DNA of 64,000 bases from Acidobacteriota bacterium (GTDB taxonomy: Bacteria; Acidobacteriota; Thermoanaerobaculia; Multivoradales; Multivoraceae): NCBI GenBank assembly GCA_003388555.1, contig QQVD01000053.1:1-64000 (forward strand), written 5' to 3'. Below the pieces are notes generated by a model that ran no database searches, was not told the origin of the DNA, and saw only the letters and a program-made list of their open reading frames with translations. This document shows positions 32,548-53,653 of this stretch, piece after piece (position 1 is the stretch's first letter; every line of letters starts with the position of its first letter). Position numbers and translations under genes: made by a program.

Positions 32548-33210
32548 ATGCAGATCGCTCCCTCCGTCTTCGCCGCCGATCTCGGCGACCTCCATGCCGC
32601 CATGCGGCTCTGTGAGCAGGGAGGAGCGGCGATGGCCCATCTCGACGTGATGGACGGCCACTTCGTCCCCAATCTGACCTTCGGCCCGCCGGTGATCGAG
32701 GCGCTCGTGGCGCGCTCGCAGCTGCCGGTCGACATCCACCTGATGGTCGAGGACCCGGATCGGCTGCTCGACCTCTACCTGGCACTGAAGCCACGCTGGG
32801 TCTCGGTGCACTACGAGGCGGCGACCCACCTCGACCGCACCGTGGCGGCGATTCGCGCTGCCGGCAGCGGGCCTGGCGTCGCGCTGAACCCCGCCACCCC
32901 GGTGGAGGTGCTGCACGACATCCTGCCGGCGCTCGACTTCGTGCTCGTGATGTCGGTGAACCCCGGCTTCTCGGGCCAGGGTTTCGTGCCCTACGCGCTC
33001 GACAAGGTACGGCGTCTGCGAAGACTGATCGAGGAGCGCGGACTCCCGGTGCGCATCGAGATCGACGGCGGCGTCACCGCCGCCAACGCGGCAGAGATCC
33101 GCGACGCTGGAGTCGACGTGGCGGTCTCCGGATCGGCGATCTTCGCGGCCGACGAGCCGATCGAGGCGCTGCGCCGGCTCTGCCGCATCGGCGCGGAGCG
33201 GGCCTCGTGA
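32548..33210 (+). CDS. rpe: Ribulose-phosphate 3-epimerase
   Basis: A 220-residue TIM-barrel metal enzyme that interconverts ribulose-5-phosphate and xylulose-5-phosphate in the pentose phosphate pathway. It starts IAPSVFAADLGDL, with metal/catalytic residues in HLDVMDGHFVPN and DIHLMV, the phosphate loop MSVNPGFSGQGF and the second catalytic Asp in IEIDGGV. ATG 32548 gives the standard N-terminus. Its stop overlaps the bamD start (GTGA). Confidence 0.96.
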   Translation: MQIAPSVFAADLGDLHAAMRLCEQGGAAMAHLDVMDGHFVPNLTFGPPVIEALVARSQLPVDIHLMVEDPDRLLDLYLALKPRWVSVHYEAATHLDRTVAAIRAAGSGPGVALNPATPVEVLHDILPALDFVLVMSVNPGFSGQGFVPYALDKVRRLRRLIEERGLPVRIEIDGGVTAANAAEIRDAGVDVAVSGSAIFAADEPIEALRRLCRIGAERAS

Positions 33211-34082
33211 CGCTCTCGGCGACGCGGCGCGATCCGCTGCGCAACCGCCCGGCGCTCGCGTGGTGGCTCCTGTCGCTGCTCACGGTGGCGCTCGCCTGCG
33301 GCGGCAAGAGGGAGGATCCGATCCTCCGGCTCTCCGCCACCGAGGCGCTCGAGCAGGGCAAGGCGCTGCTCGATCAGGAGAAGTACCGCCAGGCACGCAA
33401 GTACCTGATCCACGCCTTCGAGGTCGAGCCGAACTCGGTGGCGGGTCGCGAGGGTCTGCTGCTGGCCGCCGACGCCCTCTTCCTGCAGGACCGCTTCGAC
33501 TCGTACGTCGAAGCCGAGGGTCGCTACCGCGACTTCCTCAACCGGTTTCCGACCAGCGAGTTCGCGGACTACGCCCAGTTCCGCATGGCGGCGAGCCTGG
33601 CGCAGCGGATCGAGAAGCCGAACCGCGACCAGGAGACGACCCGCAAGGCGGTGAGCTCGTTCGAGACGCTGATCCGTGTCTATCCGACCAGCGAGTGGGT
33701 CGACGAGGCGCGGGTCGAGCTCGAACGGGTGCGCAACAACCTCGCCGAGCACGAGTTCGTCGTCGGTCACTTCTACTTCCGACGCTCCGGCCAGAACCGC
33801 GCCGTCGCCCTGGCGCAGGCGGCGGTCGACCGCTTCGAGTACCTGCTCGAGAACTACCCGGCCTACGACCAGAAGGACAAGATCCTCGCCTACCTGTGCG
33901 CCGCGCACCACCGGCTCGAGCAGGTGGAGAAGGCAGCCGAGGTCTGCGCCCGGGTCCAGCGCGAGCATCCGGACAGCAAGCACCTGGACAGGATCCCCAA
34001 GTCGCTGCGCGGTCGCGCCGCCGCCCCGTCGGCGCCAACGCCCGCGTCGACGGCCGCCAGCGACGAGCCGCCCGGCCGCTGA
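33207..34082 (+). CDS. bamD: BamD-like outer membrane assembly lipoprotein
   Basis: A 291-residue lipoprotein. The signal peptide ends in the lipobox LACG (Cys about 31). The mature part has five TPR-like helical hairpins (AFEVEPNSVAGREGLLLAADA, AEGRYRDFLNRFPTSEFADY, FETLIRVYPTSEWVDEARVE, FEYLLENYPAYDQKDKILAY), the arrangement of BamD/ComL, which holds BamA and helps insert outer-membrane barrels. The tail is Ala/Pro-rich. GTG 33207 is translationally coupled to rpe. Followed by a second TPR lipoprotein of the CpoB/YbgF type. Confidence 0.87.
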   Translation: MTLSATRRDPLRNRPALAWWLLSLLTVALACGGKREDPILRLSATEALEQGKALLDQEKYRQARKYLIHAFEVEPNSVAGREGLLLAADALFLQDRFDSYVEAEGRYRDFLNRFPTSEFADYAQFRMAASLAQRIEKPNRDQETTRKAVSSFETLIRVYPTSEWVDEARVELERVRNNLAEHEFVVGHFYFRRSGQNRAVALAQAAVDRFEYLLENYPAYDQKDKILAYLCAAHHRLEQVEKAAEVCARVQREHPDSKHLDRIPKSLRGRAAAPSAPTPASTAASDEPPGR

Positions 34083-34203
34083 GGCGGCCCAGGTCCCGAT
34101 CGGCGGTCGGGAAGATTCCATCGACTGCTACGGTTGCCCTGGCAGCTCCGGCGTCGGCCGGCAGCCGTCGAACCCCACCAGCTCCGGCCATTCGCCGCAC
34201 CGC

Positions 34204-35088
34204 ATGCCGCGTCGCCCCCTCCACCCCCTCCGACCGCGACGAGCGCTCCTCATGGCGTCTCTCGCGGTGATGTGTATCGCACTCCTCACCGGGTGCTCGA
34301 GCACTGCCTTCCAGGACCCCGACGTTCAGCTGCGGCGCCAGATCGACGAGCTGCAACAGCTCATCCTGGGGCTGCAGAAGAAGAGCGTCGTCGCCGAGGT
34401 CGAGATCCTCAGGCTGCGCGAGAAGGTCGCCGAGCTCGAGGCCGCCGGGCAGCGGGCCGCCGCCACTCCGGCGCCGGTTCCGGCGACCCCGCCGCGTCGC
34501 CCCGACACGGCGCAGCCGGTGACCAGCGCTCCGCCTCCGCCGCCGATCGAGACGACGGATCTCGAGCCAGAGCCCTCCTTCGCGCGCCGGTCGGCGGACC
34601 AGCCAACGGCGACCTCGTCTGCAGCGAACGCGGCGCCGTCGCGCGGGCCGGAAGCTCCCGGCGAGTCCGAGCTCGCCGAGTTCGACGAGGAGGAGGCCGT
34701 CGCCGTTCCGATGGCCGCACAGGCGCTCTACGACCGCGGTTTCACCGAGTACCACGAAGGCCGCTACCTCGAGGCGGAAGCCAGCCTGCAGCAGTTCCTC
34801 GAGGGCTTTCCGGACTCCGAGTGGTCGGACAACGCGCTCTACTGGATCGGAGAGGCGCGCTACGCCCGACGCGACTATCGCGGCGCCCTGGCCGCTTTCC
34901 GCGAGACGGTGAATCGCTTCCCGCTCGGCAACAAGGTGCCGGATGCGCTGCTCAAGAGCGGCCAGAGCCTGGAGCAGCTCGGCGACGGCGCCAGCGCGCG
35001 CCAGAGCTATCGTGAGATCGTGCGGCGCTTCCCCGACACCGCCACGGCGCTGATCGCCGAAGAGCGCCTGCAGCAGCTCGACCGCTGA
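34204..35088 (+). CDS. CpoB/YbgF-like TPR lipoprotein
   Basis: A 294-residue predicted lipoprotein: basic n-region (MPRRPLHPLRPRR), hydrophobic core and lipobox LLTGCSS (Cys about 31). Next is a coiled coil (about 38-82, DVQLRRQIDELQQLILGLQ), a Pro/Ala-rich linker (about 83-165) and three C-terminal tetratricopeptide units (LYDRGFTEYHEGRYLEAEAS, ALYWIGEARYARRDYRGAL, DALLKSGQSLEQLGDGAS). This coiled-coil plus TPR layout is that of CpoB/YbgF, which couples peptidoglycan synthesis with outer-membrane constriction. Unlike E. coli CpoB it appears lipid-anchored, and no tol-pal genes adjoin. Confidence 0.83.
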   Translation: MPRRPLHPLRPRRALLMASLAVMCIALLTGCSSTAFQDPDVQLRRQIDELQQLILGLQKKSVVAEVEILRLREKVAELEAAGQRAAATPAPVPATPPRRPDTAQPVTSAPPPPPIETTDLEPEPSFARRSADQPTATSSAANAAPSRGPEAPGESELAEFDEEEAVAVPMAAQALYDRGFTEYHEGRYLEAEASLQQFLEGFPDSEWSDNALYWIGEARYARRDYRGALAAFRETVNRFPLGNKVPDALLKSGQSLEQLGDGASARQSYREIVRRFPDTATALIAEERLQQLDR

Positions 35089-43817: not shown

Positions 43818-44636
43818 GTGATCCGCTTCTTCGAAGTCGGCAAGCACTACCCTCCGGCCCAGACCGCGCTCGCCGATCTCTCCTTCGAGATCGAACGCGG
43901 TGAGTTCGTCTTCCTCACCGGCGCCAGCGGCGCCGGCAAGAGCACCCTGCTCAAGCTGATCTACCGCGAAGAGCTGCCGTCGGTGGGACAGATCCTGGTC
44001 AACGGTCGCAGCGTCGCGTCGCTGCCCGAGCGCAAGATCCCCTACCTGCGGCGCACCATCGGCATCGTCTTCCAGAGCTTCCGCCTGATCCCACGCAAGA
44101 CGGTGTTCGAGAACGTCGGCTATCTCCCCCGTATCCAGGGGGCCGGACGCGGTGAGCTCGAACGCACTGTCGAGCGAGCGCTCGAGCGGGTCGGTCTGGT
44201 GGGGCGGGAGCGGGCCTACCCCCGCGAGCTCTCGGGCGGTGAACAGCAGCGCGTCGCGCTCGCCCGCGCCGTGGTGGGAGAGCCTGAGATCCTGCTCGCC
44301 GACGAGCCGACGGGCAATCTCGATCCGCGGCTGTCGATCGAGATCGTCGAGCTCCTGCGCAGCGTGCGCAGCGAGCTCGGCACCACGATCGTCATGGCGA
44401 CACACGACCACGCGGCGGTGCGTCGCTTCGGTGGACGGGTGCTGACCCTGTCACGTGGCCGACTCGCGGCCGATCGCTCACTCGAGGCGGATCCGTCCCA
44501 GGGGGTTCAGGAGTCGAGCGACCTGGCGCCGAACGACGCTCCTGGGCTCTCCACCACCCGCGACGGGGCCAGCCCCGACGCAGTCGCAGCCGACACCCGG
44601 AGCGACGACCAGACCGGGACCGAGGCAGAGCGTTGA
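43818..44636 (+). CDS. ftsE: Cell division ATP-binding protein FtsE
   Basis: A 272-residue ABC ATPase that, with FtsX, controls peptidoglycan hydrolases during division. Walker A GASGAGKST, Q-loop IVFQSFRLIP, signature LSGGEQQR, Walker B ILLADEPTGNLD and H-loop ATHDH are intact. Beyond the usual end (about residue 220) it carries a Ser/Asp/Glu-rich tail of about 50 residues that is not part of the core family. GTG 43818; stop overlaps the ftsX start (TTGA). Confidence 0.92.
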   Translation: MIRFFEVGKHYPPAQTALADLSFEIERGEFVFLTGASGAGKSTLLKLIYREELPSVGQILVNGRSVASLPERKIPYLRRTIGIVFQSFRLIPRKTVFENVGYLPRIQGAGRGELERTVERALERVGLVGRERAYPRELSGGEQQRVALARAVVGEPEILLADEPTGNLDPRLSIEIVELLRSVRSELGTTIVMATHDHAAVRRFGGRVLTLSRGRLAADRSLEADPSQGVQESSDLAPNDAPGLSTTRDGASPDAVAADTRSDDQTGTEAER

Positions 44637-45714: not shown

Positions 45715-46881
45715 TCAGAACGGCGGCGGTCCGCTGCCCGGAGCCGAGTTCTCCATCTCTTCCTGGAGACGCTTCTTCTCCGCCTCGAGGCGGGCGATCT
45801 CTGCGTTGTGGCGCTCCGCCTCCAGATTCTCCGCCGCGATCTGCTGGTTCTCGCGCACGTTGGCCGCCGCGTTGGAGTTGCCGGCCGCGTTGTACGCCGC
45901 GATCGCCTGGTCGAAGTTCTTCAGCTTGGCGTGCACGAAACCGAGCTGGTTGTTGATCTTCTTCTTGTCCTCGGCGCTGCGGGCCAGCGTCAGAGCCTTG
46001 TCGAGCGGCGCCACCGCGCCCTGGTAGTCGGCCACCGAGGCGGAGCTCTTGGCCTGGCCGAGATAGAAGTGCGGCAGCCAGTCGTTGCCCTTCATGCCGA
46101 CGGCGCGGTTCAGGGTGGTGATCGCCTCGCTGTACTGCTTGGCGCCGATCTTCGCCTCAGCGACCTTGAGCACGTTGTCGAATGACGGATCGAGCTGGGC
46201 CAGCTTCTCGGCGGTGCCCACGGCCTTGCGGTAGGCGGAGGCCTTGGCCGAGTCGTTGCTCGTGCTGAGCGCCTGGCTGAGCAGGGCCGCGTAGTGCGAC
46301 TTGCGGATCTTGGGGTCGTTCGGATCGAGCTGCACCGCCTTGTCGAGCGCGGTGACCGCGGTGCCGACCTGCCCGTCGTTGAGGGCGGCGACCCCGTAGG
46401 CGGCCCACGACACGCCGTCGTTCTTGGCCTCGGCGATCTTCTTCAGGTCGTTGATCGAGCCGCCGCCACAGTTCGCCTTGGCGCGCAGCTGGTAGAGCAC
46501 CGTCTTGTTCGCCTCCGGAAGGCTCCCTTCGCTCACCCTCGACAGCACGCCGCAGGCGTCGTTCACCTTGCCGCTCATCAGCAGCGCCTGGCCGAGCGGG
46601 AGCTGGATCGAGGCGTCGCCCGACTTGAGCTCGTTGGCCTTCTGCAGGTGGCCGACCGCCTTCGAGGCCTGGTCGGTGCGCAGCAGCATGTTGCCGAGCA
46701 TCAGGTGGCCCTGATAGGCGTCGGGCACCTTGTCGACGTAGCGCGCGAACGCAGCAGCCGCATCGCCGTACTTCTTCGCCTTCATCGCCGCCACCCCGGC
46801 GTCCCAGTCCTCGTCCGCGAAGGCGGCCGAGACACTCAGGAGTCCGAGCAGCAGCATCCAACTCGTACATTTCTTCAACAT
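45715..46881 (-). CDS. Exported tetratricopeptide-repeat protein
   Basis: A 388-residue protein with a cleavable signal peptide (MLKKCTSWMLLLGLLSVSAAFA, site after AFA) and TPR repeats across most of the mature region (DWDAGVAAMKAKKYGDAAAA, YQGHLMLGNMLLRTDQASKA, VSWAAYGVAALNDGQVGTAV and others). A C-terminal coiled coil (about 350-380, ENLEAERHNAEIARLEAEKK) precedes a Pro-rich end. It is the last gene after the exbB-exbD-exbD-tonB-DUF4388 run, and has an AGGAGA-like site (GGAGAAC) before ATG 46881. Probably a periplasmic scaffold or protein-interaction partner; specific role unknown. Confidence 0.8.
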   Translation of the reverse strand: MLKKCTSWMLLLGLLSVSAAFADEDWDAGVAAMKAKKYGDAAAAFARYVDKVPDAYQGHLMLGNMLLRTDQASKAVGHLQKANELKSGDASIQLPLGQALLMSGKVNDACGVLSRVSEGSLPEANKTVLYQLRAKANCGGGSINDLKKIAEAKNDGVSWAAYGVAALNDGQVGTAVTALDKAVQLDPNDPKIRKSHYAALLSQALSTSNDSAKASAYRKAVGTAEKLAQLDPSFDNVLKVAEAKIGAKQYSEAITTLNRAVGMKGNDWLPHFYLGQAKSSASVADYQGAVAPLDKALTLARSAEDKKKINNQLGFVHAKLKNFDQAIAAYNAAGNSNAAANVRENQQIAAENLEAERHNAEIARLEAEKKRLQEEMENSAPGSGPPPF

Positions 46882-47024
46882 GGTCGCTGTGTTCTCCGTT
46901 TGTCTCAGTTCGCTCGCCGCCGCCATACCCGGCAGGGCTTTGGATGTTCGAATCAATGTCGGATGGGGTCGCGAAATTCCGCCGCCGCGGCAGCGTCGTG
47001 GTTGCTCGCCATCGCCGGGCGGCC

Positions 47025-47873
47025 TCACGAGGCGAGAGCGTTACGACTCGCCTCGTCGAGCAGCAACGTGGCTCGACGGTCGAGCTGCAGCACTTCGTCT
47101 GGGCCACGCAGCACCAGCACGGCCTGCTCCAGCTGGCTCAGCAGATCGGTGACGGCGTCGACCGATCGTCCGGCCTCGACCTGCTTCTCGAACACGGCCC
47201 GTGCGCGCGCCAGCCGGGTCTGGGCGCGAGGATTCTCGCCGGTCAGCTCCGCCGCGGCCGAGATCATCTGCCCTCCGAGACGAGTCGACAGCTCGCGAGG
47301 GAACTCGGCCAGGGCGCGGCGATACGGCTCGACGATGTCCTCGCGCAGGCCGAGCAGCCCGGAGGTGATCAGGCCGTAGAGGGACTTCGCCACGTCGAAC
47401 GGGCTCTGCTCGAGGCCGAGGGCGATCTCTTCGATCGAACGGCGGCCGTCCACCTTGCAGATGATCGCCCACTCGTTGGGAGCGAACGACACAGAGGTGG
47501 TCACGTCGTCCTCGCGGAAGACCGGGATGTGCTGGATGCTCGGGATCCGCTTCGACAGGACGTTCCATTCGTCGATGCGCCGAGCCGCCTCCATGAGGAG
47601 GTTCGTGTTGGTCTTGCGGATCGTGATCTCGGGCGGCTCCGCGCCGCTCTCGAAGACGAACTCACCGTCCGGCCAGGTGGCCAGCTCGTACATCGCTTCC
47701 TCGCCACGCAGACGCTCGCCGCTCTGGGCGTGCACGATCTGCCCGTCCTTGAGGCAGATGGCGCCTTCACGGTGTTCCTGCTTGAGACGGAACACACCGG
47801 TCTTGCCCGACACCGAGACCAGCTGGATGATGTCGGGCAACGGCAGCTCGCGCAGGGAGCCTTGAAACGCCAA
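47025..47873 (-). CDS. DUF4388 (PATAN-like) domain protein
   Basis: A 282-residue cytosolic protein. Residues 1-95 are a DUF4388/PATAN-type domain (FQGSLRELPLPDIIQLVSVS, GKTGVFRLKQEHREGAICLK, GQIVHAQSGERLRGEEAMYE), a family found in two-component and motility contexts in myxobacteria, cyanobacteria and acidobacteria. The next section (about 100-190) has a winged-helix-like pattern (CKVDGRRSIEEIALGLEQSP) and the end is helical. TTG 47873 has GGGAGA upstream. It lies 86 nt after tonB on the same strand, and the TPR gene follows 143 nt later. Role unknown; regulatory. Confidence 0.82.
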   Translation of the reverse strand: MAFQGSLRELPLPDIIQLVSVSGKTGVFRLKQEHREGAICLKDGQIVHAQSGERLRGEEAMYELATWPDGEFVFESGAEPPEITIRKTNTNLLMEAARRIDEWNVLSKRIPSIQHIPVFREDDVTTSVSFAPNEWAIICKVDGRRSIEEIALGLEQSPFDVAKSLYGLITSGLLGLREDIVEPYRRALAEFPRELSTRLGGQMISAAAELTGENPRAQTRLARARAVFEKQVEAGRSVDAVTDLLSQLEQAVLVLRGPDEVLQLDRRATLLLDEASRNALAS

Positions 47874-47958
47874 ACGAACGTCTCCCGCGCCCGGGAGGCC
47901 GGAAGCCGCCGCCGGGCGCGAATCGTGAGCAGATTGCGAACTACTGGTGTTGTGCGGC

Positions 47959-48696
47959 TTACTGGAGCTGGAAGTTGACCGTCAGGTTGAAGTACACGGC
48001 AACCGGCTTGCCGTTCAGCGTCGCCGGCTTGAACTTCCACTGCTTGACCGCGGCCTCTGCGGCCTCGCTGAGCCCCATCGGCAGGCCCTTGAGCACCTGC
48101 ACCTCGGTCACGTTGCCCTGCTCGTCGATGATCGACTGCAGGATCACCACGCCCTGGATGCGGGCCTTGCGCGCGATCTCGGTGTACTGCGGCGGCGGCG
48201 CGTTCAGCTTCTCGGGCTTCTGCACGTCACCGGTGACGTAGATGGGGCCGGTCGGCTCCGGCTCGGGCGGCGCCTCGGGGATGCCGATGACCAGATCGTC
48301 GATCTCGGGGATGTCGAACTGCTCCGGCTCCTCGATGCGGATCGGCTCCGGCTCGTCGGGAGTCGGATCGGGGATCGGCACCTTCTTCGACTTCGGCTTC
48401 GGGATCTGCTGCTCTTCCTTCGGCGGCGGCGGCTTGAAGCGCACCTGCTGGACGACGTAGACCTTGGGCTTCTCGGCCGCAGCGGCCGGGCCCGAGCTCC
48501 ACGACGGGAAGGTGATCAGCAGCAGGCCGACGTGCGCGATGATCGCGACCACGACGGCGATCCTCATCGTGCGGTTGTCCTCGGCCTCCTCGAGCATGAA
48601 GGTCTGGAGCTGGCCTTCGGCCGCCCCCATCTTCTTGTCGGGTCGGTCGGCCGACGCCGGGGCGTCCTTGGTCGGCTTCGGTTTCGCGTCACTCAT
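47959..48696 (-). CDS. tonB: TonB-family energy-transducing protein
   Basis: A 245-residue protein with a cytosolic N-terminus of about 45 residues, one membrane helix (about 46-64, IAVVVAIIAHVGLLLI), a Pro-rich periplasmic spacer (about 80-160, KPPPPKEEQQIPKPKSKKV) and a C-terminal TonB domain (about 165-245) with ARKARIQGVVILQSIIDEQG and AAVKQWKFKPATLNGKPVAV. It transduces proton-motive force to outer-membrane partners. The cytosolic tail is longer than in E. coli TonB. Operonic with exbD and exbB. Confidence 0.92.
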   Translation of the reverse strand: MSDAKPKPTKDAPASADRPDKKMGAAEGQLQTFMLEEAEDNRTMRIAVVVAIIAHVGLLLITFPSWSSGPAAAAEKPKVYVVQQVRFKPPPPKEEQQIPKPKSKKVPIPDPTPDEPEPIRIEEPEQFDIPEIDDLVIGIPEAPPEPEPTGPIYVTGDVQKPEKLNAPPPQYTEIARKARIQGVVILQSIIDEQGNVTEVQVLKGLPMGLSEAAEAAVKQWKFKPATLNGKPVAVYFNLTVNFQLQ

Positions 48697-48795
48697 CGTG
48701 TGCCGTCCTCTCTGAGAGTGCTGTCTGCAGCTTGGTCCGATTGCCGTCTGCAGTGACGGAGGATTGGACTCCTCCGTGCTCTCTCGGGTTCCCGA

Positions 48796-49236
48796 TCAGT
48801 ACCAGAAGCTCTCGATCTCGCGCTGGGTCGGGATGGAGATGCGGATCTCCTCCGCGAACCCCTTGTCCTTGGCCTGGCGCAGCTCGTCGAGCACCTTGAT
48901 CATGTTCTCGTAGGCGGTCTCCGGGTCCGGCCGGATGATCACCGGCTTCTTCGGGTTCACCTCGAGTTTGGGCCGCAGGTAGTCGAGCACGCCGGAGAGC
49001 TCCATCGGCTTCTGGTCGACGACGATGTTGCCGCCGGGCTGGATCTCGATCAGCACCGACTCCTCCTTCTCGACCACCGGCGGAGTGTCGTCGTCCTCCG
49101 GCAGCGCGAAGTCGAGGCCGCGAGTGGCGGTGAAGGTGGTGGTCACCATGAAGTAGATGATCAGCAGGAACGCGATGTCCGCCATCGAGCTGGTCGGGAT
49201 CTCGTCGTCCACCTTGTTGTCGCGAGCTAGCTTCAT
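48796..49236 (-). CDS. ExbD/TolR family protein (second copy)
   Basis: A 146-residue biopolymer-transport protein with one N-terminal membrane helix preceded by PTSSMADIAFLLIIYFMVTT, which contains the conserved proton-path Asp, and a periplasmic domain (about 45-146). It is adjacent to another ExbD homologue and to exbB. The start MKLARDNKVDDEIPTSS at ATG 49236 is the standard one. The two copies are clearly paralogues but differ strongly outside the helix. Confidence 0.92.
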   Translation of the reverse strand: MKLARDNKVDDEIPTSSMADIAFLLIIYFMVTTTFTATRGLDFALPEDDDTPPVVEKEESVLIEIQPGGNIVVDQKPMELSGVLDYLRPKLEVNPKKPVIIRPDPETAYENMIKVLDELRQAKDKGFAEEIRISIPTQREIESFWY

Positions 49237-49341
49237 CGCATCGGACTCCTTCGTTGCTTCCTGACTACCGGCGCTGCGCCGCGCTCTGCCCTCCGTCCCG
49301 CGCCGGTCGGCGACGCTGGCATCGGGGGAGGTCGTCGGGCC

Positions 49342-49770
49342 CTAGCCCGCGCTGTCGACCGTCTTCTGGTCGGAGAGCAGATAGATGATCCGTACCTTGG
49401 CTCGCTTCAGGGAGTCGATGACCTCGTCGACCTGGCGGTACGGAACCCCCGCGTCGGCCTTGAGCACGAACTCCTTGCCGGGATCGGTGGCGACGACGCC
49501 GGCCGCGAAGGCGAACACCTCCGCGGGCGGCACCGAAGCACTGATCTCCTCACCGTTGCTGACCTTGACCTGCCCGGCGGAATCCAGCGAGACGTAGGCC
49601 GCCTTCTTCGGGATCTCCATGCGAAGGGTCGTCTTCGGCAGCACCACCTGGGTCTTGTCGACCTCGATGGTGATGGTGAGCATGAAGAAGATGATCAGCA
49701 GGAAGGCGATGTCCGCCATCGAGGATGTCGGGATCGTCTCCGGCAGCGGCTTCGACGCTTTCATTTTCAT
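49342..49770 (-). CDS. exbD: ExbD/TolR family protein (first copy)
   Basis: A 142-residue paralogue of the downstream ExbD: IPTSSMADIAFLLIIFFMLT has the same membrane helix and Asp, followed by a periplasmic domain with VVLPKTTLRMEIPKKAAYVS and LKADAGVPYRQVDEVIDSLK. ATG 49770; an internal ATG two codons later is also possible. It lies 31 nt downstream of exbB. Confidence 0.92.
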   Translation of the reverse strand: MKMKASKPLPETIPTSSMADIAFLLIIFFMLTITIEVDKTQVVLPKTTLRMEIPKKAAYVSLDSAGQVKVSNGEEISASVPPAEVFAFAAGVVATDPGKEFVLKADAGVPYRQVDEVIDSLKRAKVRIIYLLSDQKTVDSAG

Positions 49771-49801
49771 CGGGGAACTCCGGGCGGATCGGTCGGGCGG
49801 A

Positions 49802-50485
49802 TCAGGGCTTCTTGGGCGCCTCGGCCGGCGGCGCGCCGACCTCGGGCTGGATGCCGCTGCGCTCCATCTCGCCGAAGGTCTCGAGCAGCATGTTCGCCGA
49901 CGTCTCGATGTCGCGCACGAACTTGTTGATCCTGCTCATGAAGTAGTTGTAGGCCAGCTGCGTCGGGATGGCGACGAAGAGGCCGGCCGCGGTGGTGGTC
50001 AGCGCCTCCTTGATGCCGGTGGCGACGAGACCCGGGTTCGACAGGCCGGCCGCGGCAAGGGCGTCGAAGCCCTTGATCATGCCGGTGACGGTGCCGAAGA
50101 AGCCGAGCAGCGGGGCGACGTTGGCGGTGGTCGCGAGGAAGGCGAGGAAACGCTCGAGGCGGCTCATCTCGAACATCGCCGCGTTCTCGATCGTCTTCTC
50201 GACGTCCTCCCTGGGCTGACCGTACTTCAGCAGGCCGGCCTTCATGATCGAGGCGACCGGACCCTTGTACTGCTCGCAGACCTTCACCGCCTCGCGGATC
50301 GAGCGATTGACCACCAGCGCCTTGCGGATCTTGGCCAGGAACTCGTTGACCGGGATGCTGGCCCGCCAGAGAGCGATGAAGCGCTCGATGATCACGGCGA
50401 CCGCGAGCACGGAGAAGATCAGGAGGGGCCACATGACCGGCCCACCTTCGCGCATGAGCTTCCAGAAAGTTCCACCAATTTCCAC
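49802..50485 (-). CDS. exbB: ExbB/TolQ/MotA family proton channel
   Basis: A 227-residue inner-membrane protein: TM1 about 20-40 (VMWPLLIFSVLAVAVIIERF), a cytosolic loop, then TM2 and TM3 (about 115-190) with FLATTANVAPLLGFFGTVTG and TTAAGLFVAIPTQLAYNYF, the MotA/TolQ/ExbB signature. It forms the pentameric stator around ExbD dimers. GTG 50485 has GAGGAGG 5 nt upstream. First gene of the exbB-exbD-exbD-tonB run. Confidence 0.94.
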   Translation of the reverse strand: MEIGGTFWKLMREGGPVMWPLLIFSVLAVAVIIERFIALWRASIPVNEFLAKIRKALVVNRSIREAVKVCEQYKGPVASIMKAGLLKYGQPREDVEKTIENAAMFEMSRLERFLAFLATTANVAPLLGFFGTVTGMIKGFDALAAAGLSNPGLVATGIKEALTTTAAGLFVAIPTQLAYNYFMSRINKFVRDIETSANMLLETFGEMERSGIQPEVGAPPAEAPKKP

Positions 50486-50849: not shown

Positions 50850-51422
50850 TCATCTCGGCCACTGCGCGTCACCCCGCGAGGAGCCGCGCTCGAGCGCGCG
50901 GTGGCGCGCCGTCTGGCTGGCGCAGAGGGCCACCGCGAGCGCATCCGCCGCGTCGGCAGCGAGACGGCCGCGGATGCCCAGGAGCAGTCGGACCATGCGC
51001 TGCATCTGCTGCTTGTCGGCGCGACCGTTGCCGGCCACCGAGCGCTTGACCTCGGCCGGCGCCAGCTCGTGCAGGTCGACTCCTCGCTGGCCGACGACGG
51101 TGAGGATCGCTCCGCGGGCGTGGGCGAGCACGATCGCCGAGCGCGCGTTGACGCCGCTGAACAGCGTCTCCACCGCCACCAGATCGGGCCGGTACTCCTC
51201 GAGCAGCTCGTCGACCGCCGACGCCAGCAGCGGCAGCCGGCGACTGAGCTCGCCGGCCGAGGCGATGCGCAGGCAGCCCGAACCGAGCGCCGCGCAGCGG
51301 GTGCCGCGCCGCTCGACGACGCCCCAGCCGGTGGTGCGGCTGCCGGGATCGAGACCGAGCACCCTCAACGGCGCGCCCTCGAGCAGCCCGGCGTCGCCAG
51401 GCACCCACCCCGGTGGCGCCAT
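50850..51422 (-). CDS. ruvC: Holliday-junction resolvase RuvC
   Basis: A 190-residue endonuclease that cuts Holliday junctions made in homologous recombination. Catalytic acidic residues are in LRVLGLDPGSRTTGWG, VETLFSGVNARSAIVL and the C-terminal AADAADALAVALC. ATG 51422 gives an extra 18-residue leader before LRVLGLD; longer in-frame extensions contain a tandem repeat and are rejected. RuvA and RuvB are not adjacent; yebC lies directly upstream, a common neighbour. Confidence 0.94.
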   Translation of the reverse strand: MAPPGWVPGDAGLLEGAPLRVLGLDPGSRTTGWGVVERRGTRCAALGSGCLRIASAGELSRRLPLLASAVDELLEEYRPDLVAVETLFSGVNARSAIVLAHARGAILTVVGQRGVDLHELAPAEVKRSVAGNGRADKQQMQRMVRLLLGIRGRLAADAADALAVALCASQTARHRALERGSSRGDAQWPR

Positions 51423-51540
51423 CGCTGTCGCCTCCGGCGGGCCGGCGACGCGGCTGCACGAGCCGCGGCCCACGAGGGTCTCGACCGCGGTGCCGACGGC
51501 GGCGACCCGATCGCGGCCGTCGCGCCGCGACCGCACGACG

Positions 51541-52343: not shown

Positions 52344-53135
52344 AGGGAAGCTGCTCCTCGCGGTTTGGAAGGTGCTGGTTCGAAGGTGCTGGATCGAAGA
52401 CTGGACCGACGTCGGACTGACGGCGAACCGAGGCAGGGCGGAGAGACGGCCACGCGGAGGTGGCGACGGCCTCCGTCGGCTTGCTCTCTGTCGTGTTGGC
52501 TGTCTGTCCTGGTGGCTCTGTTCCTGCTGCGGATCTGCTGCTGTCGTGGCGCGATGCGCTGCCGGCTTCCTGCCACTGGCCGATTGCCGGAAGGGCCTCC
52601 CTCCTCGACGCGGCTTGCGCGGCGTGCCCGCGGCGCCGCGACGCACCGGTGCGCCGGTGCGCCGAGAGGGGGACAGCCGCAGCCCCGGGCGACCGCTCGT
52701 CGCGGCCATCCACCGAAGCGCCGACGACGGCACGCGACCCGCGTCGACGAGGCACCGGCCCGGCGGCGGCAGGGCGGCGCGTGAACGCTCGGGCCCGCCG
52801 ATCGATGCCCGCAGCGCCAGCGCGGCGCAGCCCTCCCAGCATAGCTGCGTTCCCGCCTGCAAGAACAGGGGCGGCAAGCGTCGTGGGGACGCCTCCCGGG
52901 GGCAGCTGGCGGGCATCGGGCCCCGAAGTCCTCGTCCGCTTCCTCGCCACCCGGTCCGCGGCCTGGCTCGTGCCGAGCTTCACAGCGCCGCGGCTCGCGG
53001 CTGCCGGCGCAGTGCACCGCTGGCCGTCCCGGTCCATCGCTCGCTCTGGCGAGCTCAGGCGGCGGCGGGCTCGACGCGCCCGCCCCGCGTTGACAGTGCG
53101 CAGGGCAGGGCCTTAGAGTCCGGCCTTGTGTCGAT
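52344..53135. other. Intergenic region, nothing recognised
   Basis: A 792-nt gap between yebC (-) and tRNA-Pro (+), the longest unexplained stretch. It contains a short duplicated GAAGGTGCTGG unit (about 52367-52390) and at its right end the tRNA-Pro promoter. Open frames on both strands translate to Arg/Ala/Pro-rich nonsense without any recognisable domain; none was accepted. Confidence 0.5.
53090..53119 (+). promoter_or_regulatory. Promoter of tRNA-Pro and probably the tRNA cluster
   Basis: TTGACA (53090-53095), 18-nt spacer, TAGAGT (53114-53119), ending 17 nt before the mature tRNA-Pro. The four tRNAs follow within about 520 nt in the same orientation and could be one transcript. Confidence 0.7.
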
Positions 53136-53209
53136 CGGGGCGTGGCGCAGCCTGGTAGCGCACCTGCCTTGGGCGCAGGGGGTCATCAGTTCAAATCTGA
53201 TCGCCCCGA
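53136..53209 (+). tRNA. tRNA-Pro (anticodon TGG), CCA not encoded
   Basis: Acceptor CGGGGCG (53136-53142) pairs with CGCCCCG (53202-53208), discriminator A at 53209. Anticodon arm CCTGC-CTTGGGC-GCAGG gives anticodon TGG. T-arm with GTTCAAAT. The mature 3' end is followed by TTCC rather than CCA, so CCA must be added by the nucleotidyltransferase, unlike the other tRNAs in this window. Confidence 0.95.
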
Positions 53210-53224
53210 TTCCTGATCCCCCCA

Positions 53225-53301
53225 CTGCCTGTAGCTCAGTTGGATAGAGCGGCGGCCTTCTAAGCCGCGGGTCGGGGGTTCGAATCCCTCCAGGCAGGCC
53301 A
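53225..53301 (+). tRNA. tRNA-Arg (anticodon TCT), CCA encoded
   Basis: Acceptor CTGCCTG (53225-53231) pairs perfectly with CAGGCAG (53291-53297); discriminator G, then CCA at 53299-53301. Anticodon arm GCGGC-CTTCTAA-GCCGC gives TCT, reading AGA/AGG. T-loop GTTCGAAT. Confidence 0.95.
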
Positions 53302-53442
53302 GCCATCCCGGCGACCTGAGCCGCCGACGACACGGAGACCTCGACGAGCGAGGTCGGTTCGATGGGCCGAGAGGGCCTGCGGTCCTCAGCGATCCAGTGG
53401 GTCACCCAGTGGGTCCTCGGCGGATCCGGCGGATCGTGACAT

Positions 53443-53518
53443 GGTGGGCGTAGCTCAATGGTAGAGCCCCTGGTTGTGGTCCAGGTGGTTGGGGGTTCGA
53501 GTCCCCTCGCCCACCCCA
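53443..53518 (+). tRNA. tRNA-His (anticodon GTG), CCA encoded
   Basis: Acceptor GTGGGCG (53444-53450) pairs with CGCCCAC (53508-53514); the extra G-1 at 53443 faces discriminator C at 53515, the tRNA-His identity pair; CCA follows (53516-53518). Anticodon arm CCTGG-TTGTGGT-CCAGG gives GTG. It lies next to a histidine-catabolism operon. Confidence 0.96.
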
Positions 53519-53576
53519 CGCGCGAAACGCCGCTCCACGCGTCGTCGATCGACCGTAGAGAGGTCCGAAGGATCAG

Positions 53577-53653
53577 GCGCCCGTAGCTCAGCTGGATAGA
53601 GCGACAGCCTCCGGAGCTGTAGGTCAGAGGTTCGAATCCTCTCGGGCGCACCA
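53577..53653 (+). tRNA. tRNA-Arg (anticodon CCG), CCA encoded
   Basis: Acceptor GCGCCCG (53577-53583) pairs with CGGGCGC (53643-53649); discriminator A and CCA at 53651-53653. Anticodon arm ACAGC-CTCCGGA-GCTGT gives CCG, reading CGG, a frequent arginine codon in this GC-rich genome. Confidence 0.95.

What the first reader, a model, noticed from the sequence alone, without database searches (positions are those of the whole stretch)
45715..50485. Six-gene envelope-energy cluster: ExbB, two ExbD paralogues, TonB, DUF4388 and a TPR protein
One ExbB/TolQ-type channel, two TolR/ExbD-type proteins and a TonB protein are followed by a DUF4388/PATAN protein and a periplasmic TPR-coiled-coil protein, all on one strand. 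One TolQ with two TolR homologues is the stator set-up of the myxobacterial Agl gliding motor, and PATAN/DUF4388 proteins occur near motility and two-component genes. This suggests a proton-driven envelope machine that is more than iron uptake. The comparison with Agl is analogy, not homology proof.
Basis: partly seen in the sequence, partly recalled or inferred. Interest (0 to 1): 0.55.

Follow-up and report, generated by a model that had tools for sequence, protein, structure and literature searches.

The report
Ton motor with a TPR partner
This is very likely the main outer-membrane "uptake motor" of a little-studied bacterium of the Acidobacteriota; it has two versions of one motor part and a repeat-rich helper protein that stays with the motor in most of its relatives, which suggests the helper is a real, overlooked part of the machine.

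Summary
The six genes are real: ExbB, ExbD1, ExbD2, TonB, DUF4388/PATAN and a TPR protein with a signal peptide, all on the minus strand between ruvC and ftsX. Best reading: the genome's only ExbB/ExbD Ton motor (the one other ExbB-like hit is TolQ-like, in a Tol-Pal-type operon), in a genome with 24 receptor plug-domain matches. Gliding is not supported, but could not be tested by tree.

The six parts are not equal. In the 148 held genomes of the class, TPR and ExbB mark the same genomes (87 have both; one has each alone, both cut by contig ends). DUF4388 is separable: 33 of 88 ExbB genomes lack it, 51 genomes have it without this ExbB. Of 60 genomes without this ExbB, 53 have another ExbB type; the operons read have the same make-up (TPR lipoprotein, TonB, ExbB, two ExbD). 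Outside the class, 67 loci show two ExbD in all, TPR in 57, TonB in 38, DUF4388 in 8; in one clade TonB is absent but TPR remains.

So the TPR protein looks like a fourth core part of an ExbB/ExbD1/ExbD2 motor. All function is inferred from genomics. New variant of a known kind.

The parts
49802..50485 (-). ExbB-type proton channel subunit (227 aa, GTG start)
   Evidence: Pfam MotA_ExbB 117 bits; motor residues T148, E176, T181 (E. coli numbering) kept in 14 of 14 window-type ExbB aligned
49342..49770 (-). ExbD1 (142 aa), with the membrane Asp
   Evidence: Pfam ExbD 63 bits; Asp25 kept in 14 of 14 ExbD1 aligned; own clade
48796..49236 (-). ExbD2 (146 aa), second, different ExbD with the same Asp
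   Evidence: Pfam ExbD 89 bits; Asp25 kept in 14 of 14 ExbD2 aligned; own clade
47959..48696 (-). TonB (245 aa): N-tail, one membrane helix with His, Pro-rich spacer, TonB_C domain
   Evidence: Pfam TonB_C 78 bits; TIGR01352 60 bits; a His lies in the helix segment in 40 of 43 window-type TonB, the other 3 being short calls without a clear helix
47025..47873 (-). DUF4388/PATAN protein (282 aa, TTG start), no signal peptide or membrane helix by eye; PATAN 1-106, winged helix about 109-179, helical bundle about 182-281
   Evidence: Pfam DUF4388 99 bits; AlphaFold2 mean pLDDT 92.4; winged helix Z about 10; separable from the string
45715..46881 (-). TPR protein (388 aa): signal peptide, TPR superhelix, C-terminal long helix and a Gly/Pro-rich tail
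   Evidence: Pfam TPR; model mean pLDDT 92.4; same genomes as ExbB in the class
50850..51536 (-). RuvC (flank, not part of the machine; DUF4388 lies near ruvC/yebC in relatives without the motor)
   Evidence: Pfam RuvC 152 bits
44633..45538 (+). FtsX (convergent flank; FtsE-type ABC gene at 43818-44636)
   Evidence: Pfam FtsX_ECD 42 bits

Best explanation
The cluster encodes the main Ton motor of this Acidobacteriota cell. ExbB pentamers hold a pair of ExbD helices, most likely one ExbD1 and one ExbD2; [quoted passage not shown] The secreted TPR protein is a dedicated periplasmic partner that docks on the periplasmic parts of ExbD/TonB and tunes or couples the motor (to the wall or to receptors). 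DUF4388 is a cytoplasmic add-on, probably regulatory, that often sits in the same string but also occurs without the motor. Shown here: gene content, motor residues, co-occurrence, joint absence. Inferred: mixed ExbD pair, TPR docking site, DUF4388 role, and the Ton function itself.
For: Own genome: 2 ExbB hits at E<=1e-8; the second lies in a Tol-Pal-type operon (ExbB-, ExbD-like, TonB_2, PD40/TolB-like and OmpA proteins). 24 Plug matches at E<=1e-5. Motor residues kept in ExbB, both ExbD and the TonB helix. Replacement: of 148 class genomes 87 have only this ExbB, 53 only an alternative ExbB, 1 both, 7 neither (one of the 7, G109, is cut by a contig end), with both states inside families f8, f9 and f14. 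The alternative operon is TPR lipoprotein-TonB-ExbB-ExbD-ExbD: two ExbD in 22 of 22 loci read, TPR in 16 of the 20 not cut short, the 4 without all from family f10. TPR: same genomes as ExbB (87 of 148 both, 59 neither). Around DUF4388 the motor genes on one side and TPR on the other are present or absent together: of 70 loci with both sides readable 40 both, 27 neither (13 of these beside ruvC/yebC), 3 motor genes only, 0 TPR only. TonB-TPR pairs stand in tandem in 4 genomes of genus g2 and TonB-TPR-TPR in 3 (read in L171, L173). Outside the class TPR in 57 of 67 loci, TonB in 38. Distance residuals: TPR with ExbB, ExbD1, ExbD2 and TonB in all four runs, partial r 0.37-0.79, permutation p 0.001-0.007.
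Against: No experiment, no expression data, no model of a complex. DUF4388 is not clean in the distance test: with TonB its partial r is 0.07, 0.42, -0.03, -0.11 and with ExbD2 -0.17, 0.33, -0.10, -0.12 over the four runs, but with ExbB it is 0.32, 0.71, 0.29, 0.41 and with TPR 0.23, 0.55, 0.20, 0.19, so it follows the motor in part; the permutations do not allow for relatedness. In 25 of 67 outside-class loci no TonB lies beside the motor, so a Ton role is not shown there. 6 of 51 outside-class loci with enough sequence lack a TPR gene; family f10 lacks the alternative TPR. Of two outside-class TPR hits without an ExbB hit that I read, one (G150) has the ExbB-ExbD-ExbD-TonB-TPR string with a more distant ExbB, the other (G358) shows none of the parts nearby. 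Receptor number does not prove that this TonB serves them. NCBIfam's exbB and ExbD equivalog cut-offs are not reached.
Confidence: 0.68

Rival explanations
1. Gliding or other surface-motility motor like Agl-Glt of Myxococcus: ExbB/ExbD1/ExbD2 as AglR/Q/S, TonB as GltG, the TPR protein as GltE, DUF4388 as a motility regulator.
For: Similar general make-up: AglR with AglQ and AglS, GltG with a TonB tail, TPR proteins GltC/D/E (PMC3169522, passages). PATAN proteins are linked to type IV pilus motility in cyanobacteria (PMC7690835, passages).
Against: The only Pfam domain in TonB is TonB_C, no FHA, and its tail model is the general TonB one. 53 of 60 class genomes without this ExbB carry another ExbB, and the 22 such operons read are Ton-like. 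It is the only non-Tol ExbB found in a genome with 24 plug matches. No Agl sequence was at hand for a tree.
Confidence: 0.07
2. A Tol-Pal-like envelope system, with the TPR protein as a CpoB relative.
For: CpoB is a periplasmic TPR/coiled-coil protein at the end of tol-pal that binds TolA (PMC7391070, passages). ExbB scores higher against the TolQ model (110 bits) than the ExbB model (71 bits), both under their cut-offs.
Against: The genome has a separate Tol-Pal-type operon; a relative's Tol operon (L197) ends in its own CpoB-like TPR lipoprotein. No TolB- or Pal-like gene is in the window cluster. The domain order differs: TPRs first, long helix last.
Confidence: 0.1
3. The TPR gene is only a stable neighbour with no part in the motor.
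For: All data are genomic, and gene order in this region (yebC-ruvC ... ftsX-ftsE) is stable in general.
Against: It is present or absent with the motor while DUF4388 between them stays; it follows ExbB-ExbD-ExbD outside the class and stays in a clade without adjacent TonB; a different TPR lipoprotein opens the alternative operon.
Confidence: 0.12

Closest known systems
Ton systems with tandem exbD genes (Sphingobium tonB1-exbB1-exbD1-exbD2; Riemerella exbB2-exbD21-exbD22-tonB2; Xanthomonas tonB-exbB-exbD1-exbD2; Myxococcus Ton-Oar)
   Same: One ExbB, two different ExbD and one TonB in one cluster (PMC8599685, PMC4446302, PMC3551730, PMC6434023; passages)
   Different: No TPR or DUF4388 gene is mentioned with them in the passages seen; the term TPR does not occur in the text of the Myxococcus, Riemerella and Sphingobium papers
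TPR + tolQ-like + paired tolR-like + vWA force transducer cluster of the PVC group
   Same: A TPR gene beside one channel gene and two different TolR-like genes (PMC12204202, passages)
   Different: The force transducer there is a vWA protein, here TonB; other phyla
Fibrobacter succinogenes FSU_2397-2403
   Same: Locus tags in the paper's tables put two TPR proteins (FSU_2397, 2398) close to ExbB (2400), ExbD (2401), ExbD (2402) and TonB (2403) (PMC6851124, passages)
   Different: Closeness is read from tag numbers only; no DUF4388 listed there; homology of the TPR proteins not tested
Agl-Glt gliding machinery of Myxococcus xanthus
   Same: One TolQ-like and two TolR-like subunits; TonB-tailed and TPR partners (PMC3169522, passages)
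   Different: GltG has an FHA domain; the tail model differs; no tree was possible
Tol-Pal with CpoB
   Same: Proton motor, trans-envelope protein, periplasmic TPR/coiled-coil protein last in the operon (PMC7391070, passages)
   Different: No TolB/Pal here; the genome has a separate Tol-Pal-type operon; other domain order in the TPR protein

Membership tests
Ton energiser (ExbB-ExbD-TonB) | ExbB/TolQ-family channel with the proton-path residues | tested here: met
   MotA_ExbB 117 bits; T148, E176, T181 kept in 14 of 14
Ton energiser (ExbB-ExbD-TonB) | ExbD with the membrane Asp | tested here: met
   Both copies; 14 of 14 each
Ton energiser (ExbB-ExbD-TonB) | TonB with His-bearing membrane helix and TonB_C domain | tested here: met
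Ton energiser (ExbB-ExbD-TonB) | TonB-dependent receptors in the same cell | tested here: met
   24 Plug matches at E<=1e-5 in the own genome
Ton energiser (ExbB-ExbD-TonB) | Ton-type rather than Tol-type ExbB/ExbD by curated models | tested here: inconclusive
   Under every equivalog cut-off: exbB 71 of 206, ExbD 30 of 216, TolQ 110 of 221, TolR 49 of 127 bits
Ton energiser (ExbB-ExbD-TonB) | Energises receptor uptake | not testable with these tools
   needs a mutant
Agl-Glt gliding motor | Falls in the AglR/AglQ/AglS clades | not tested
   no Agl sequence was obtained
Agl-Glt gliding motor | GltG-type partner with FHA domain and AgmX/PglI tail | tested here: not met
   No FHA match in TonB; tail model 20.6 bits, cut-off 40
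Tol-Pal | TolB and Pal beside the motor | tested here: not met
   absent here; TolB- and Pal-like proteins lie at another locus, L163
PATAN/DUF4388 family | DUF4388 domain over the cut-off | tested here: met
   98.6 bits, cut-off 25
PATAN response regulators of type IV pili | PATAN joined to a receiver domain | tested here: not met
   DUF4388 is the only Pfam match of the protein

The most novel reading that the evidence does not exclude
The phylum-wide unit is not ExbB-ExbD-TonB but ExbB-ExbD1-ExbD2-TPR: a proton motor with a mixed ExbD pair and a dedicated periplasmic TPR subunit, to which TonB (and, further out, DUF4388) is an exchangeable addition. In the clade without a neighbouring TonB the same motor would drive another trans-envelope task, or a TonB encoded elsewhere, with the help of the TPR protein.
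Probability: 0.3. Interest if true: 0.75.

Novelty: new variant of a known kind. Interest (0 to 1): 0.5.

Why it matters
How Ton motors pass force through the periplasm, and why several lineages keep two ExbD copies, are open questions. A TPR protein that stays beside the motor more often than TonB does outside this class (57 against 38 of 67 loci), and a different TPR lipoprotein in the class's alternative Ton operon, give a concrete candidate for a fourth motor subunit and a direct test for a mixed ExbD1/ExbD2 pair.

Tried and rejected
Fur box: no match to the 19-base E. coli consensus (recalled, not from a call) with up to 3 mismatches in the window; weak in a GC-rich genome. Promoter-like 0 (shuffles 0.3) and terminator-like 2 (shuffles 3.3) sites. 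Rfam at gathering scores: only tRNAs. PDB sequence search with DUF4388: no hit up to E 1. Foldseek with the DUF4388 model: none under E 0.001; the second look matched the winged helix (Z about 10, residues 109-179) and helical bundles, common arrangements, so I draw no function from them. The TPR model matches generic TPR superhelices. A recalled idea that Bacteroidota carry ExbB-ExbD-ExbD-TonB-PstS-TPR was not met in the one annotated plasmid read (one ExbD); in Riemerella a phosphate-binding protein gene follows tonB2 (passage). Ten further TPR relatives in class genomes were read for their neighbours: none showed ExbB or ExbD beside them, and one (G104) a weak 50-bit TonB match two genes away. 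My first notes gave genus g2 as 23 genomes; it has 21, 20 with the motor.

Rows dropped, limits, results against: the gene caller missed DUF4388 in 5 of 80 loci (L087, L107, L120, L145, L146), so flanks were scored by tblastn, where 10 of 80 loci had one side unreadable. Of the 3 scored motor genes without TPR, L133 does show a TPR gene, L154 has a different ExbB (30% identity) and L120 is a short contig. 14 of the 27 'neither' loci have DUF4388 at another place, away from ruvC/yebC. On that tree only 4 supported independent pairs exist; TPR went the same way in 3.2 on average and never the other way, which cannot reach significance, and gain cannot be told from loss. Distance tests used 15 loci and 24, 25 and 20. 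The YebC query carried a false N-terminal extension (matches begin near residue 190), so the YebC control is poor. The trees are quick ones with long branches flagged. In one search I set labels by hand (67 rows, 14 class rows from earlier calls); L272 has 11% of columns filled. L326 ends 593 bases after ExbB, its second ExbD being a cut 24-bit match. The TPR profile is generic: it also gives about 40 bits to other TPR proteins, against 41-212 bits for the operon copies (lowest L303 at a contig end, L260 56). First looks were capped: TPR 4 candidates scored per genome and 12, DUF4388 16; the phylum ExbB set is limited to E<=1e-55. Alternative TPR genes in L165, L166 and L168 were recognised by eye, L164 by Pfam, 12 by BLAST. 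Not finding a paper on this set-up rests on searches of an open-access library only.
Full report
What is there. Six genes lie head to tail on the minus strand, from 50485 down to 45715: exbB, exbD1, exbD2, tonB, a DUF4388 gene and a TPR gene. Gaps are 31 to 143 bases. All six pass Pfam cut-offs. The string sits between ruvC/yebC and the convergent ftsX-ftsE-gatB genes. I call its class Thermoanaerobaculia by inference.

The motor is intact. ExbB keeps T148, E176 and T181 and both ExbD keep the membrane Asp in all aligned copies (14 each); a His lies in the TonB helix in 40 of 43, the other 3 being calls without a clear helix. ExbD1 and ExbD2 each form their own clade, so the pair is old. The module's ExbB lies on another branch than TolQ, E. 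coli ExbB and the second ExbB type of this class (long branches flagged).

What it serves. The own genome has two ExbB matches at E up to 1e-8. The second lies in a run of ExbB-like, ExbD-like, TonB_2, PD40/TolB-like and OmpA proteins, a Tol-Pal-type operon. The genome has 24 Plug matches at E up to 1e-5. So this is the only set found that can be the Ton energiser.

The replacement test. I searched the 148 held genomes of the class. The window-type ExbB is in 88, an alternative ExbB in 54, both in 1 (G126) and neither in 7, of which G109 is cut by a contig end. Both states occur inside families f8, f9 and f14, so there were several switches. I read 22 loci of the alternative type (4, 18). All 22 have two ExbD. 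Of 20 not cut short, 16 open with a TPR lipoprotein gene, then TonB-ExbB-ExbD-ExbD; the other 4 are all family f10. So two Ton operons on separate ExbB branches share one parts list. This fits one Ton system standing in for another, and it points to the TPR protein as a wanted part.

The TPR gene. The TPR profile is found in 88 of 148 genomes, 87 of them ExbB genomes. The two mismatches are cut by contig ends: G079's contig ends inside the TPR gene and G109's begins inside TonB. On DUF4388-anchored loci the motor genes on one side and the TPR gene on the other are present or absent together: 40 both, 27 neither, 3 motor genes only, 0 TPR only, of 70 readable. The tree needs 6 changes of the motor label, 4 forced by well-supported branches; TPR never went the other way, but 4 independent pairs are too few for significance, and gain is not told from loss. 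In genus g2 the TonB-TPR pair stands in tandem in G001, G006, G007 and G021, and the TPR gene alone is doubled in G005, G013 and G020.

Outside the class. In an even draw of 396 genomes of the phylum the TPR profile matched 73 and the ExbB 99. Outside the class 41 genomes have the TPR hit and 67 the ExbB hit; 24 have both, and in 23 of these the TPR gene lies 1.0 to 2.9 kb downstream of ExbB on the same strand. I read all 67 ExbB loci: two ExbD follow in all 67 (one cut at a contig end), TPR in 57, TonB in 38, DUF4388 in 8. Of 51 loci with at least 4.2 kb downstream, 45 have TPR and 28 TonB. In 25 loci TPR follows ExbD2 with no TonB match between; in the nine measured the gap runs from a 3-base overlap to 83 bases. 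The 28 loci without TonB are one side of one branch, so this may be a single change, and TPR is there in 25 of them. By eye most of these TPR proteins begin with a cleavable signal peptide, so they are unlikely to replace TonB as an anchored rod. Of two outside-class TPR hits without an ExbB hit, G150 has the whole string with a more distant ExbB and G358 shows none of it.

Rates. After removing a control distance (FtsE; RuvC+FtsE twice; YebC+RuvC), TPR co-varies with TonB, ExbD1, ExbD2 and ExbB in all four runs. DUF4388 does not co-vary with TonB or ExbD2 in three of four runs, but does with ExbB in all four and weakly with TPR. With YebC+RuvC as control all pairs correlate; YebC is a poor control here. 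I treat this as mild support for TPR and as unclear for DUF4388.

DUF4388. The protein has no signal peptide or membrane helix by eye: PATAN domain, winged helix and helical bundle. It is in 106 of 148 genomes, 55 with and 51 without this ExbB. Without the motor it lies near ruvC/yebC in 16 of the 80 named loci or elsewhere, for example behind DUF4013 and DUF2085 genes with a TonB_2 gene nearby. The six-gene order is nevertheless old, as it occurs in families f30 and f77 outside the class. I read it as a regulator that shares the string; what it regulates is unknown. PATAN proteins of cyanobacteria are linked to type IV pili (PMC7690835, passages), a lead and not a test.

Known relatives. Tandem exbD genes are described for several Ton systems (passages). 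[quoted passage not shown] In Xanthomonas exbD2 is not needed for iron uptake but for other tasks (PMC3551730), so two ExbD need not form a mixed pair. A TPR gene beside a tolQ-like gene and two tolR-like genes is reported for the PVC group with a vWA transducer (PMC12204202), and Fibrobacter tags place two TPR genes near exbB-exbD-exbD-tonB (PMC6851124). So the parts list recurs in other phyla; I found no paper that treats the TPR protein as a Ton subunit.

Verdict. A Ton motor with a TPR partner and a paired ExbD: a new variant of a known kind. The gliding reading is not supported but not fully tested, since no Agl sequence was available.

Noticed in passing
L092:3459-6038 (minus) and 24 other loci: A serine/threonine kinase joined to a C-terminal TonB_C domain lies divergent upstream of yebC: by a pattern count 25 of 39 loci with YebC (domains checked by Pfam in L092 only). 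In the window the tRNA genes lie on that side of yebC instead.
   Followed up: partly
L126:7715-10750 and similar loci: DUF4388 sits behind DUF4013 and DUF2085 membrane-protein genes with a TonB_2 protein divergent next to them (Pfam run on one example of each): a second DUF4388-TonB neighbourhood.
   Followed up: partly
window 33207-35088: A YfiO/BamD-like TPR lipoprotein gene is followed by a coiled-coil/TPR lipoprotein gene that looks like YbgF/CpoB, on another contig than the Tol-Pal-type operon.
   Followed up: no
L085:2283-3455, L152:6644-7945: A recurrent pair downstream of DUF4388 or TPR in some relatives: a protein without Pfam match (cluster of 13) and an OmpA-domain protein (cluster of 16). 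In the window FtsX follows TPR directly.
   Followed up: no
window 53135-53653: Four tRNA genes (Pro, Arg, His, Arg) on the plus strand next to yebC.
   Followed up: no
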